A stretch of DNA of 64,000 bases from NCBI GenBank assembly GCA_017882455.1, contig JADGPL010000002.1:1-64000 (forward strand), given 5' to 3'. Source of the DNA: Solirubrobacteraceae bacterium. Lineage in GTDB: Bacteria; Actinomycetota; Thermoleophilia; Solirubrobacterales; Solirubrobacteraceae. Shown piece after piece: positions 4,790-12,795 of the stretch; position 1 is the stretch's first letter; the number at the start of each line of letters is the position of its first letter. The translations under genes were made by a program, and so were the position numbers. The notes beneath the pieces are model-generated. The model searched no databases and was not told the origin of the DNA. It saw nothing but the letters and a program-made list of their open reading frames with translations.

Positions 4790-5761
4790 GTGCCCGATCC
4801 CGTCTGCCTGATCGTCAATCCAGCTGCCGGCGGCGGCAAGGCCGGGCGCATTGCGCCCGCAGTCGAGCAGGCATTGCTCGGGCACGGCCTGCGCGTGCGC
4901 CGTTGCGAAACGCTCCATCTCGAGCACGCGCGCGAGCTCGGATGCGAGGCCGCGAGGGCCGGAGAGACGGTCGTCGCGCTCAGCGGCGACGGCATGATCG
5001 GGGTCCTCGCCGACGCGCTGCAGGCGGTCCCCGGGGCGATCCTCGGCGTGCTTCCCGGCGGGCGCGGCAACGACCTCGCACGCGTGCTCGGGATCTCCGA
5101 TGACGCTGTGGCCGCCTGCGAGACCATCGCCCACGGCGTCCCGCGTCCGGTCGACCTCGGCGTGGCGGTCGACCCGAGCACGGGCGTGGTGGGCCGAGCA
5201 TTCGTGGGGATCGCCTCGGTCGGATTCGACAGTGAGGCCAATCGCATCGCAAACGAGGCCCCAGCCTGGCTCGGTGGAGGTGTCTACGCCTACGGCGCCC
5301 TGCGCGCGCTGCTCTCCTGGCGCCCAGCCCGTTTCGAGATCGAGCTGGACCCGCCCGGCGAACGCCACGCGTTCACCGGCTACACGATCGCCGCGGCCAA
5401 CTCCAGGGCCTACGGCGGCGGGATGCTGATGGCGCCCGACGCGCTGCTCGACGACGGGCTGCTCGAGGTGATCGTCGTCGAGGACGTCAGCCGCGCACGG
5501 TTCCTGGCCAACCTGCCCAAGGTCTTCCGCGGCACCCACGTGCAGCTGCCCTCCGTGCACGTGTTCCGAGCGGCCGAGGTCGCGATCGCCGCCAACCGTC
5601 CCTTCACAATGTACGCCGACGGCGACCCGCTCGGAGAGCTCCCGCTGCGCATCCGCGCCGTCGCCGGCGCCGTGAACATACTCGTCCCCGCCGACCGCCC
5701 CGACTCTCCGTTCGCCAAGGCGTACCGCCCCACGGCCTCCGCCGAGATCGGCGCGGACTGA
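4790..5761 (+). CDS. Diacylglycerol/sphingosine kinase family lipid kinase
   Basis: The product is a 323-residue protein of the DAGK catalytic family (YegS/DgkB-like), which phosphorylates a membrane diacylglycerol-type lipid. VNPAAGGGKAG is the N-terminal nucleotide-binding segment and LPGGRGNDLARVLG is the family GGRGND motif. The usual GGDGT is here SGDGM (residues 65-69), an unusual last position. The C-terminal half has the expected beta-sandwich pattern with YADGDPLGELPLRIR. Its TGA overlaps the ATG of murT by one base, so the two are translationally coupled. Lipid recycling next to lipid II amidation makes sense, but the substrate is not shown. Confidence 0.88.
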   Translation: MPDPVCLIVNPAAGGGKAGRIAPAVEQALLGHGLRVRRCETLHLEHARELGCEAARAGETVVALSGDGMIGVLADALQAVPGAILGVLPGGRGNDLARVLGISDDAVAACETIAHGVPRPVDLGVAVDPSTGVVGRAFVGIASVGFDSEANRIANEAPAWLGGGVYAYGALRALLSWRPARFEIELDPPGERHAFTGYTIAAANSRAYGGGMLMAPDALLDDGLLEVIVVEDVSRARFLANLPKVFRGTHVQLPSVHVFRAAEVAIAANRPFTMYADGDPLGELPLRIRAVAGAVNILVPADRPDSPFAKAYRPTASAEIGAD

Positions 5762-7170
5762 TGAGCGCCACACTGCAGGTCAAGCTCGCGCTCGCGCGGG
5801 CCGTGGGCGCGCTCTCGCGCCTGCGCGGCGGAGGCGCCACGAGCGTGCCCGGGAAGGTCCTGATGCGCCTGCAGCCGGACGCCATCGGCGCCCTCGGGGC
5901 GCGGCTGCGCATGGGCAGCGTGCTCGTATCGGCGACCAACGGCAAGACCACCACCGCCACCATGACCGCCGCGGTCCTCCAGCGGGCCGGCATCGAGCTC
6001 GTGCACAACCAGGCCGGGGCCAACATGGCCGGCGGGATCGCCACCACGCTGATCGGCGCCTCCCGCCCCCACGGGTCGATGGCCGGTGAGCTCGGCCTGT
6101 TCGAGGTCGACGAGCTGTGGCTCGCCTCGCTCGCGGCCCAACTGCGCCCTCGCGTCGTCCTGCTCGGCAACCTGTTTCGCGACCAGCTCGATCGCTACGG
6201 CGAGCTCGAGACGATCGCCGAGAGCTGGAAGCGGGTGATCGAGGATGGCGCCGCGCAGCTCGTGCTCAACGCCGACGATCCGCTCGTGGCCGATCTCGGT
6301 CGCGGGCGCTCCGACGTCGTGTACTTCGGTCTCGAGGACGACACGCTCGCCCTCCCCGGGATGGCCCATGCGGCCGACGCCAAGCACTGCCGTCGCTGCG
6401 GCGCGCCCTACGTCTTCGACGCCGTATATCTCGGCCACCTCGGCCACTATCACTGTCCGAGCTGCGGCCAGAGCAGGCCGGCTCCGACGGTCAGCGCCGG
6501 CGAGGTACGCCTAGAAGGGGTCCGCGCGGCGCGCTTCACGCTGAGCACGCCCGCCGGGCAGGCCGAGGTATCACTCGCCCTCCCGGGCCTCTACAACGTC
6601 TACAACGCGCTCGCAGCCGCCGCGCTCGCAACCGCCCTCGAGGTTCCGCTCGAGACGATCGCGGCGGGGCTCTCGAGCGCCAGAGCCGCATTCGGCCGCG
6701 CCGAGAGCGTCGGCCTCGCGATCCCCGCAACCGCAGGCGGCGCCGCGGCCGCCAGGCGCGAGTTGCGAATCATGCTCATCAAGAACCCCGCCGGCGCCAA
6801 CGAGGTCCTGCGCACGCTCGCCCTCGAGCCCGGCGAGCACGACCTGCTCGGGGTGCTCAACGACCAGATCGCGGACGGCCGCGACGTCTCCTGGATCTGG
6901 GACGCCGACTTCGAGCTGCTCGCCGACCGCGTCCGCCTCGCAACCTGCAGCGGCACTCGCGCCGCCGACCTCGCCGCCCGCTTGAAGTACGCCGGCCTCG
7001 ACCCCTCGCGGATCCACATCCAGAGCGATCTCGGCGCGGCGCTGCGCGAAGCCGCCGCGGAGCGCCCCGACGCCGATGCTCCGCTGTATGCGCTGCCAAC
7101 CTATACGGCAATGCTCTCGCTGAGGGAGCTGCTCGTCGCCCGCGGCGAGGCCAGCAGCGCATGGTCGTGA
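5761..7170 (+). CDS. murT: Lipid II isoglutaminyl synthase subunit MurT
   Basis: The product is a 469-residue Mur-ligase-fold subunit which, with GatD, amidates the D-glutamate of lipid II. VSATNGKTTT is the P-loop. HCRRCGAPYVF with HCPSCG forms the four-Cys zinc ribbon inserted in MurT proteins. The C-terminal part (MLIKNPAGANEVLRTL onward) is the DUF1727 region that contacts GatD. It is coupled to the lipid kinase upstream and overlaps the methyltransferase gene downstream by ten bases. Confidence 0.93.
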   Translation: MSATLQVKLALARAVGALSRLRGGGATSVPGKVLMRLQPDAIGALGARLRMGSVLVSATNGKTTTATMTAAVLQRAGIELVHNQAGANMAGGIATTLIGASRPHGSMAGELGLFEVDELWLASLAAQLRPRVVLLGNLFRDQLDRYGELETIAESWKRVIEDGAAQLVLNADDPLVADLGRGRSDVVYFGLEDDTLALPGMAHAADAKHCRRCGAPYVFDAVYLGHLGHYHCPSCGQSRPAPTVSAGEVRLEGVRAARFTLSTPAGQAEVSLALPGLYNVYNALAAAALATALEVPLETIAAGLSSARAAFGRAESVGLAIPATAGGAAAARRELRIMLIKNPAGANEVLRTLALEPGEHDLLGVLNDQIADGRDVSWIWDADFELLADRVRLATCSGTRAADLAARLKYAGLDPSRIHIQSDLGAALREAAAERPDADAPLYALPTYTAMLSLRELLVARGEASSAWS

Positions 7171-7949
7171 CCCCGAGCCGCGCCGGCGCGCACCACACGC
7201 TCCCGCCAGAGGTGGTCTGGCACGACCTCGAGTGCGGCGCCTACCGCGCAGACCTGCCGCTGTGGCGCGAGCTGGCCGAAGAGGCGCGTCTGGCGGACCC
7301 CGCGGCGAGGATCCTCGACATCGGCGCCGGAAGCGGGCGCGTGGCGCTCGAGCTCGCCCGGGCCGGGCACCACGTAACCGCGCTCGACAGCGCCGGCGCG
7401 CTGCTGGAAGCGCTGCGCCTGCGCGCGAGCGGGACACCGGTGGAGACCGTCGAAGCCGACGCTCGCAGCTTCGAGCTCCCCCATCGCGACTACGCCCTGT
7501 GCCTGGTGCCCATGCAGACGGTCCAGCTCCTCGGCGGCCCGGCCGGGCGCAGGGAGATGCTTCGCGCCGTGCGCGCCCACCTGCGTCCCGGAGGCCTGCT
7601 GGCCTGCGCAATCGTGACCGAGCTCGAGCCATTCGACGCCGAGCTCGAGGGTCACCGGCCATCCCCCGAGCGTGCCCACATTGAAGCGGCGCTCTACGAG
7701 AGCCGTGCGCTGAGTGTGCGGGTGGGCCGGCGCAGCATCCGCATCGAGCGCGAGCGCACCGCCACGCCGGACTCGGGCGGACAGGCTCCGGCGCCCACGC
7801 GTGAGCGCAATGTCATCGAGCTCGACCGCCTGAGCGCAGCCCGCCTGCATCGCGAGGGAGGCGAAGCGGGACTGCACGATGCCGGCACGCGCTCGGTGTC
7901 CTCGACCGAGGAGCACGTCGGCAGCACGGTGGTGATGCTCCGTGGCTGA
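7161..7949 (+). CDS. Class I SAM-dependent methyltransferase inserted between murT and gatD
   Basis: The product has about 262 residues from the ATG giving MVVTPSRAG, which overlaps the end of murT by ten bases. ILDIGAGSGRVALELARAGH is motif I, with the SAM-binding glycine loop. An acidic residue follows at the end of strand 2 (VTALDSAGALL), then VEADARSF and the post-motif LRPGGLLACAIV. The substrate is unknown. Its end overlaps gatD by eight bases, so all three are translated as a unit. A role in modifying a cell-wall precursor is an inference from position only. The ORF track merges it with an out-of-frame extension. Confidence 0.85.
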   Translation: MVVTPSRAGAHHTLPPEVVWHDLECGAYRADLPLWRELAEEARLADPAARILDIGAGSGRVALELARAGHHVTALDSAGALLEALRLRASGTPVETVEADARSFELPHRDYALCLVPMQTVQLLGGPAGRREMLRAVRAHLRPGGLLACAIVTELEPFDAELEGHRPSPERAHIEAALYESRALSVRVGRRSIRIERERTATPDSGGQAPAPTRERNVIELDRLSAARLHREGGEAGLHDAGTRSVSSTEEHVGSTVVMLRG

Positions 7950-8712
7950 CAGCGCTCCCGCGACCCCGGGCTCCACCCTGCGCGTCTGCGCGCTGTATCC
8001 CGACCTCATGAACATCTATGCCGACCGCGGCAACCTGATCGTGCTCGAGCGCCGCTGCGCCTGGCGCGGGATCGGCTTCCAGCTGTTCTCCAGCAGCCTG
8101 GGCGAGCCCCTCGACGGGGGCGAGCACGACCTCTTCTACATCGGCGGCGGCCAGGACCGCGACCAGCGCCTCTGCGCAGAGGACCTGATCGAGAACAAGC
8201 GCGAGGGACTGCGGGCCGCCGCCGCGCGCGGAGCCATCGTGCTCGGGGTCTGCGGCGGCTACCAGCTGCTCGGGCACTCCTACGCCCTCGGCGAGGAGGA
8301 GATCCCCGGCGTGGGGCTGCTCGACGTGCGCACCGTGCGCGAGGACGGCCCCCGTCTGATCGGCAACGTCGCCATCGAGGCCTCGCTCGACGAGATGGAC
8401 GCCAACGCCGAGGAGCGGGTGCTCGCGGGCTTCGAGAACCACGGCGGACGCACCTACCTAGCCGAGGGCCAGGCCCCGCTCGGGCGGGTCCTCAAGGGCT
8501 ATGGCAACGACGGCCGCAGCGGCGTCGAGGGCGCCCGCACCGCCAACACGATCGGCACCTACCTCCACGGACCGCTGTTGCCCAAGAACGTGTGGTTCGC
8601 CGACTGGCTGATCTCGCGGGCGCTGGGGCTGGGCCCCGGGGAGCTCGCCCCGCTGGAGGACGGGATCGAGCGCCAGACCCACCGGAGCGCGCGCCAGGCC
8701 GCGGGCGTCTGA
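7942..8712 (+). CDS. gatD: Lipid II isoglutaminyl synthase glutaminase subunit GatD
   Basis: The product is a 256-residue class I (triad) glutamine amidotransferase that supplies ammonia to MurT. RVCALYPDLMNIYADRGN is the typical GatD/CobQ-like start. GVCGGYQLLGHSY carries the nucleophilic Cys. FYIGGGQDRDQ is the GatD loop, and TYLHGPLLPKN supplies the catalytic His. It starts at a GTG overlapping the methyltransferase stop. The cluster order lipid kinase, murT, methyltransferase, gatD is fully overlapping and surely an operon. Confidence 0.93.
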   Translation: MADSAPATPGSTLRVCALYPDLMNIYADRGNLIVLERRCAWRGIGFQLFSSSLGEPLDGGEHDLFYIGGGQDRDQRLCAEDLIENKREGLRAAAARGAIVLGVCGGYQLLGHSYALGEEEIPGVGLLDVRTVREDGPRLIGNVAIEASLDEMDANAEERVLAGFENHGGRTYLAEGQAPLGRVLKGYGNDGRSGVEGARTANTIGTYLHGPLLPKNVWFADWLISRALGLGPGELAPLEDGIERQTHRSARQAAGV

Positions 8713-11628: not shown

Positions 11629-12795
11629 TCAACCCGCGAGCGTGCCCAGCCGTGTCATGGCCTCCAGCAGGCGATCGTCTGGAGTCGTCAGCGAGATCCG
11701 AAACCAGCCCTCGCCCGCGGGACCGTAGACGGCGCCCGGGGTGAGCACCACGCCCGTGCGCTCGATCACGTGCTCGCAGTACTCCTCCGAGCTGCCGAAG
11801 CCCTCAGGCACGGGCGCCCACACGTAGATCGTGCTCCGCGGCGGCGTCACGTCCACGCCGATCGAGCGCAGCCCCTCGCACACCAGATCGCGCCGGCGCA
11901 GGTACAGCTCGTTCATCGAGGCCACCTCCGCGTCCGCCTCCGGCGAGAGCGCCGCGATCCCAGCCAGCTGCACCGCCTCGAACAGCCCCGAGTCGATGTT
12001 TGTCTTCAACCGCCAGTACGTCTGCACCGCCTCCGCGTTTCCCACCACCACCGCGCAGCGCCAGCCCGTCATGTTGTAGCCCTTCGACAGCGAGAACACC
12101 TCGATCCCCACCTCCTTGGCGCCCGGCGTCGCCAGGAACGAAGGCGCCCGGTAGCCGTCGAAGGTGATCTCCGAATAGGCGTTGTCGTGCACCACCAGGA
12201 TCTCGTGCTCGCGCGCGAACTCCACCACGCGCTCGAAGAAGCCCTCCGGCACCACCGCTCCCGTCGGGTTGTTGGGGTAGTTGAGGTACATCAGCTTCGT
12301 GCGGCCGAGGACCTCCTCGTCGATCGCCTCCAGGTCCGGGGTGAAGCCGCGCTCGGGCTCAAGCGCCATCAGCACCGGCTCCCCGCCCGCCAGCCACGGC
12401 CCGCCCGTGTACACCGGGTAGCCCGGGTCCGCCGCCAGCGCGTAGTCCCCCGGGTCCAGGAAGGCCAGGTTGAGGTTGAAGATCGCCTCCTTGGCCCCGA
12501 TCGCCGGGATGACCTCCCGCTCCTTGTCCAGGTCCACGTCGAAGCGGCGCTCGTAGAAGTCGCTGACCGCTTCCCGGAAGTCCTCGCGGCCGCGGTTCGA
12601 GGGGTAGCGGTGGGTCTCCGGCTCGCTCACCGCCTCCTGCATCGCCTCCACCACCAGCGCCGGCGTCGGGCGGTCCGGGTCGCCGATCCCGAGGCTGATC
12701 ACGTCCACTCCCGCTGCCCGCTTCTCCTCGATCGTCCGCTCCAGGCGGGCGAACGCGTACGGCGGGATGCGCTCCAGGCGCTTACTCGGTCTCAT
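11629..12795 (-). CDS. dapL: LL-diaminopimelate aminotransferase-like enzyme (class I/II aminotransferase)
   Basis: The product is a 388-residue PLP enzyme. SLSKGYNMTGWR contains the Schiff-base Lys and the following Arg, and YLNYPNNPTGAV and HDNAYSEITFDGY are the fold-type I cofactor-binding segments. The similarity is to LL-DAP aminotransferases, which convert tetrahydrodipicolinate directly to LL-diaminopimelate. Its start overlaps the 3' end of dapF by 14 bases, and dapA and dapB are in the same window, which supports the DAP role. A general aspartate/alanine aminotransferase cannot be excluded. Confidence 0.85.
   Translation of the reverse strand: MRPSKRLERIPPYAFARLERTIEEKRAAGVDVISLGIGDPDRPTPALVVEAMQEAVSEPETHRYPSNRGREDFREAVSDFYERRFDVDLDKEREVIPAIGAKEAIFNLNLAFLDPGDYALAADPGYPVYTGGPWLAGGEPVLMALEPERGFTPDLEAIDEEVLGRTKLMYLNYPNNPTGAVVPEGFFERVVEFAREHEILVVHDNAYSEITFDGYRAPSFLATPGAKEVGIEVFSLSKGYNMTGWRCAVVVGNAEAVQTYWRLKTNIDSGLFEAVQLAGIAALSPEADAEVASMNELYLRRRDLVCEGLRSIGVDVTPPRSTIYVWAPVPEGFGSSEEYCEHVIERTGVVLTPGAVYGPAGEGWFRISLTTPDDRLLEAMTRLGTLAG

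What the first reader, a model, noticed from the sequence alone, without database searches (positions are those of the whole stretch)
5761..8712. Methyltransferase embedded between murT and gatD
MurT and GatD form one enzyme and are normally adjacent. Here a SAM methyltransferase gene overlaps both (10 and 8 bases), so the three are translated as a unit with a lipid kinase in front. A methylated lipid II or a methylated cell-wall amide would be new, though the target is unknown.
Basis: partly seen in the sequence, partly recalled or inferred. Interest (0 to 1): 0.55.

Follow-up and report, generated by a model that had tools for sequence, protein, structure and literature searches.

The report
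Methyltransferase gene inside murT-gatD operon
In soil actinobacteria of the order Solirubrobacterales and one further order of their class, a methyltransferase gene sits between, and usually overlaps, the two genes that amidate the cell-wall precursor; the enzyme's target is unknown, it is not needed for amidation, and it hints at an undescribed methylation of the cell envelope.

Summary
In detail: lipid kinase 4790-5761, MurT 5761-7170, SAM methyltransferase 7161-7949, GatD 7942-8712, all + strand, each overlapping the next. It is not a local accident. Among 150 good genomes of the class, 64 carry the methyltransferase; in all 62 that also have MurT it lies directly behind murT. In about 40 other actinobacterial loci checked, murT and gatD are adjacent or fused, with nothing between. 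So it is a real, lineage-specific variant of the murT-gatD operon (Solirubrobacterales and one further order). The methyltransferase has been lost several times while MurT-GatD stayed, including in the same genus, so amidation does not need it. In two genomes MurT and GatD are gone but the methyltransferase remains behind the lipid kinase with 47/47 and 44/47 conserved residues intact, so its substrate is not the MurT-GatD amide. By profile and fold it belongs to the TylM1/CypM/CorZ group, mostly amine N-methyltransferases. Best guess (0.35): it methylates the peptidoglycan precursor stem (amine more likely than carboxyl) independently of amidation; a wholly unrelated substrate is about as likely. 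Methylated peptidoglycan as such is already reported in mycobacteria.

The parts
4790..5761 (+). YegS/BmrU-type lipid (diacylglycerol) kinase, first gene of the overlapping set; stop overlaps the murT start by one base (TGATG)
   Evidence: next to murT in most Solirubrobacterales loci, not in the f5 order
5761..7170 (+). MurT, ligase subunit of lipid II isoglutaminyl synthase; ATP-binding, GAN, DE, Cys4 and KNP motifs present
   Evidence: PF08353 8e-34
7161..7949 (+). Class I SAM-dependent methyltransferase (262 aa from ATG 7161; alternative GTG start at 7167), motif WHDLECGxYxADLPLW and loop VPMQTVQLL
   Evidence: AlphaFold2 mean pLDDT 93.8; fold of TylM1/CypM/CcbJ class
7161..7170 (+). murT stop / methyltransferase start overlap (10 bases from ATG, 4 bases from GTG 7167)
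7942..7949 (+). methyltransferase stop / gatD start overlap, GTGGCTGA
   Evidence: 8-base overlap in 38 of 87 related loci
7942..8712 (+). GatD, glutamine amidotransferase subunit of lipid II isoglutaminyl synthase; Cys104, His209, Asp28, Arg138 present
   Evidence: PF07685 5e-38

Best explanation
The gene encodes a small-molecule/peptide-type SAM methyltransferase of the TylM1-CypM-CorZ fold group. It is made together with MurT and GatD, probably by coupled translation, and most likely methylates the peptidoglycan precursor (UDP- or lipid-linked muropeptide), probably a free amine of the stem such as that of meso-diaminopimelate, less likely a free carboxyl. The reaction is a parallel decoration of the same precursor and does not need MurT-GatD or its amide. 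Shown: gene content, overlaps, conserved order, fold class, separability from MurT-GatD in both directions. Inferred: amine chemistry (from relatives) and the precursor as substrate (from linkage alone).
For: Linkage: 64 of 150 class genomes have the gene, and in 62 of 62 that also have MurT it lies directly behind murT on the same strand (61 within 160 bases between profile edges). Coupling: overlapping starts and stops in most of 87 loci. Fold and profile: nearest solved relatives include CorZ (9sot), CypM, CcbJ, MtfA and TylM1, all amine N-methyltransferases; CorZ methylates the free N-terminal amine of a short peptide (PMC12951456); the best NCBIfam hit is the daptide methyltransferase, which dimethylates a primary amine on a peptide. 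The loop that lines the acceptor in CorZ aligns with the nearly invariant Met118-Gln119, and CorZ Tyr12 with His21 (numbering offset of 20 inferred by me). Solirubrobacter contains meso-DAP, so an acceptor amine exists. Methylated muropeptides exist in mycobacteria.
Against: No sequence feature points to a muropeptide as substrate. The gene is kept where MurT and GatD are lost (G027, G106) and lost where they are kept (about six changes of presence on the MurT+GatD tree). The whole neighbourhood (hflX, dapL) is conserved in many genomes, so part of the linkage may be inertia. More distant relatives in other phyla are coupled to unrelated housekeeping genes such as pcnB, plsX and an lpxB-like gene, so this superfamily's context is a poor guide to its substrate. 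A few structural neighbours (PsmD, SeMT) are C-methyltransferases.
Confidence: 0.35

Rival explanations
1. The methyltransferase acts on a substrate unrelated to peptidoglycan (a soluble metabolite, nucleotide or other housekeeping target) and sits in the operon as a passenger kept by coupled translation and genomic inertia.
For: Retained with 47/47 and 44/47 conserved residues after loss of MurT and GatD; lost repeatedly while MurT-GatD persist; extra stand-alone copies in G035, Solirubrobacter taibaiensis and G050; distant relatives coupled to pcnB, plsX and lpxB-like genes; flanking hflX and dapL are also conserved.
Against: In all 62 class genomes with both genes the methyltransferase is behind murT, including an order where the lipid kinase is not next to the operon; pure inertia would be expected to leave some relocated copies.
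Confidence: 0.35
2. It methylates a membrane lipid or lipid headgroup and works with the lipid kinase in front, not with MurT-GatD.
For: In the two MurT/GatD-less genomes the kinase and the methyltransferase remain next to each other, overlapping by four bases in G027. An unidentified aminophospholipid is reported in a Solirubrobacter strain.
Against: The kinase is not next to the operon in the other order (f5) and in several Solirubrobacterales loci that keep the methyltransferase (L098, L114, L121, G053); the closest solved relatives act on amines of peptides or amino sugars, not on lipids.
Confidence: 0.12
3. It methylates the alpha-carboxyl of D-isoglutamate (or a DAP carboxyl) to a methyl ester, a charge-neutralising alternative to amidation, which would explain its survival when MurT-GatD is lost.
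For: Retention without MurT-GatD; methylated D-Glu/DAP carboxyls are reported in mycobacterial muropeptides.
Against: Nearest characterised relatives are mostly N-methyltransferases; the same carboxyl is used by MurT-GatD in most carriers, so the two would compete.
Confidence: 0.1
4. It is a third subunit or regulator of the MurT-GatD complex.
For: Overlapping genes in the order murT, methyltransferase, gatD; invariable linkage.
Against: MurT-GatD without it in congeners and sister families, and it without MurT-GatD in two genomes; SAM-binding motif and putative active site conserved.
Confidence: 0.06

Closest known systems
murT-gatD operon / lipid II isoglutaminyl synthase (Staphylococcus aureus, Streptococcus pneumoniae, mycobacteria)
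   Same: Same two subunits with the motifs required for activity, in the same gene order
   Different: In the known operon the two genes are adjacent (4 bp apart in S. aureus); here a methyltransferase gene lies between them
CorZ/BytZ myxarylin N-methyltransferase (PDB 9SOT)
   Same: Best profile match among solved structures (1e-21); shared N-terminal motif region and SAM domain; the f5-order version matches it over its full length (8.6e-25)
   Different: The window family's profile matches only about the N-terminal two thirds; acceptor-lining residues differ (CorZ Tyr12, Phe109, Arg110 correspond to His21, Met118, Gln119, inferred from the alignment); no RiPP precursor or P450 was seen around the gene
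Daptide methyltransferase MpaM (NCBIfam NF041820)
   Same: Best NCBIfam hit over residues 37-253 (91.6 bits)
   Different: Far below the curated cut-off of 175 bits; no daptide biosynthesis genes identified nearby
TylM1/DesVI amino-sugar N,N-dimethyltransferases
   Same: Closest global fold (TM 0.70-0.78)
   Different: About 18% identity; no sugar nucleotide pathway at the locus
Methylated peptidoglycan of mycobacteria
   Same: Would be the same kind of product: methyl groups on muropeptides (PMC4995902)
   Different: There the methyl is assigned to carboxyl groups of D-Glu or DAP; the murT-gatD loci sampled in other actinobacterial families have no methyltransferase between the genes

Membership tests
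MurT/GatD lipid II isoglutaminyl synthase | MurT: Mur ligase middle domain, MurT_C domain, GAN and DE motifs, four-cysteine insertion | tested here: met
   residues as in PMC6085368
MurT/GatD lipid II isoglutaminyl synthase | GatD: GATase_3 domain with catalytic Cys, His and Asp | tested here: met
   Cys104, His209, Asp28, Arg138 present and conserved in alignment A2
MurT/GatD lipid II isoglutaminyl synthase | murT and gatD directly adjacent | tested here: not met
   methyltransferase gene 7161-7949 between them; adjacency is usual but not universal for the family
Class I SAM-dependent methyltransferase (Methyltransf_25) | Rossmann fold and GxGxG SAM motif | tested here: met
   (G55, G57, G59 invariant)
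Daptide methyltransferase NF041820 | Score above curated cut-off | tested here: not met
   91.6 of 175 bits
CorZ/TylM1-type amine N-methyltransferase | Overall fold, including the beta-sheet insertion after the SAM domain | tested here: met
   (TM to TylM1 0.70-0.78)
CorZ/TylM1-type amine N-methyltransferase | Same residues around the acceptor amine | tested here: inconclusive
   aligned positions are conserved within this family but differ from CorZ
CorZ/TylM1-type amine N-methyltransferase | Methylates a free amine | not testable with these tools
   needs an enzyme assay

The most novel reading that the evidence does not exclude
An operon-coupled methyltransferase installs an undescribed N-methylation on the peptidoglycan stem (for example on meso-DAP) across Solirubrobacterales and a further order of the class, in parallel with D-isoglutamine amidation and surviving its loss.
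Probability: 0.22. Interest if true: 0.75.

Novelty: new variant of a known kind. Interest (0 to 1): 0.42.

Why it matters
Stem-peptide modifications govern cross-linking, hydrolase and immune recognition and antibiotic binding. If this enzyme acts on the precursor, it would give a genetic handle on peptidoglycan methylation in a large, poorly studied soil group; I know of no enzyme assigned to the methylation reported in mycobacteria (own knowledge). The natural losses in both directions make the question directly testable by comparing near relatives with and without the gene.

Tried and rejected
Chance ORF or assembly artefact: rejected, up to 63% protein identity in congeners and conserved overlaps. 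Two independent insertions: a first tree put the f5-order methyltransferases with Myxococcota relatives, but adding ten f5 sequences placed them next to the Solirubrobacterales copies (support 93); a single origin is simpler and not rejected, and the formal AU test on the first set did not finish. Independence of the two MurT-GatD losses (G027, G106): they are not sisters in the methyltransferase tree, but support is weak. Daptide or RiPP cluster: rejected on score and surroundings. DNA/RNA methyltransferase: only weak Erm/KsgA-type hits confined to the SAM motif region. Literature search for a murT-gatD methyltransferase gave no relevant paper; the Mahapatra 2005 paper on mycobacterial lipid II is not held.

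Full report
Observation. The window carries, on the + strand, a YegS/DAGK lipid kinase (4790-5761), MurT (5761-7170), a class I SAM methyltransferase (7161-7949) and GatD (7942-8712), each overlapping the next. MurT and GatD keep the motifs known to matter.

Conservation. The window lies in a Solirubrobacterales genome (nearest named relatives). In 61 close genomes the order murT-methyltransferase-gatD is found in the same genus, family and order. In an even draw of 150 good genomes of the class, 64 have the gene and 62 of these have MurT; in all 62 it is directly behind murT. The arrangement also occurs in a family of the class outside the order (f5), where the lipid kinase is not next to it. 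In families f4, f7, f8, f9, f10 and f11 of the class, and in some thirty loci from other families of the phylum, murT and gatD are adjacent or fused with no gene between.

Separability. Congeners G005, G007, G009, G013 and G017 keep kinase, MurT and GatD without the methyltransferase and show no orthologue elsewhere; G037 and family f4 likewise lack it. On a MurT+GatD tree this needs about six changes. Conversely G027 and G106 (the same genome as L096) have no MurT or GatD detected anywhere, yet the methyltransferase follows the kinase with 44/47 and 47/47 family-conserved positions intact. Hence it neither serves nor needs amidation. Its product, if on the precursor, is a parallel modification.

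What kind of enzyme. A model of high confidence (pLDDT 93.8) is closest in fold to TylM1/DesVI, CalS10, CypM and CcbJ and to some C-methyltransferases. The profile's best solved match is CorZ (9sot), which methylates the free N-terminal amine of a short cyclic peptide (PMC12951456). The best curated family is the daptide dimethyltransferase, below its cut-off (PMC10036551). Amine N-methylation is therefore the likeliest chemistry. Family-specific residues His21, Tyr28, Met118, Gln119 and Gln122 are nearly invariant. Met118 and Gln119 align with the CorZ residues Phe109 and Arg110 that line the acceptor site (inferred numbering).

Substrate. Only linkage speaks for the peptidoglycan precursor. 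Against over-reading it: the neighbourhood with hflX and dapL is broadly conserved, and distant relatives are coupled to pcnB, plsX or lpxB-like genes. I therefore give 0.35 to a precursor substrate and about the same to an unrelated one. Methylated muropeptides as such are not new: methylation of D-Glu or DAP carboxyls is reported in mycobacteria (PMC4995902).

Origin. Trees do not settle whether the f5 and Solirubrobacterales copies share one insertion; the fuller tree favours one origin (support 93) over the earlier, sparser one.

Verdict. A real lineage-specific variant of the murT-gatD operon, not described in the papers held, with an uncharacterised, probably amine-directed methyltransferase.

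Noticed in passing
L203, L217, L223, L227 (family f29), L215 (f23), L228 (f6): MurT and GatD are encoded as one fused open reading frame (MurT C-terminal domain, linker, GatD) in several other actinobacterial families.
   Followed up: partly
L061/L101 (G027) and L096/L182 (G106): Two genomes of the window's family lack detectable MurT and GatD although 94-96% complete; lipid II amidation by this route is presumably absent there.
   Followed up: partly
L062:5790-6866 (G035) and L099 (Solirubrobacter taibaiensis): A second, stand-alone copy of the methyltransferase; in G035 the open frame runs on from an antitoxin-like sequence.
   Followed up: no
L105 and L162 (G063): Kinase-methyltransferase-gatD without murT; murT lies on another contig of the same genome.
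   Followed up: no
L130, L154, L125, L127: Distant CorZ-like methyltransferases are next to pcnB (Myxococcota), plsX (Chloroflexota) or an lpxB-like gene (Deinococcota), often overlapping or nearly so; the reason is unknown.
   Followed up: partly
L111, L112: Public MAGs labelled Bifidobacterium breve carry Solirubrobacterales-type loci and look mislabelled.
   Followed up: no
window 11629-12795 (-): LL-diaminopimelate aminotransferase (dapL) lies about 3 kb downstream of gatD on the other strand and stays near in most relatives.
   Followed up: partly
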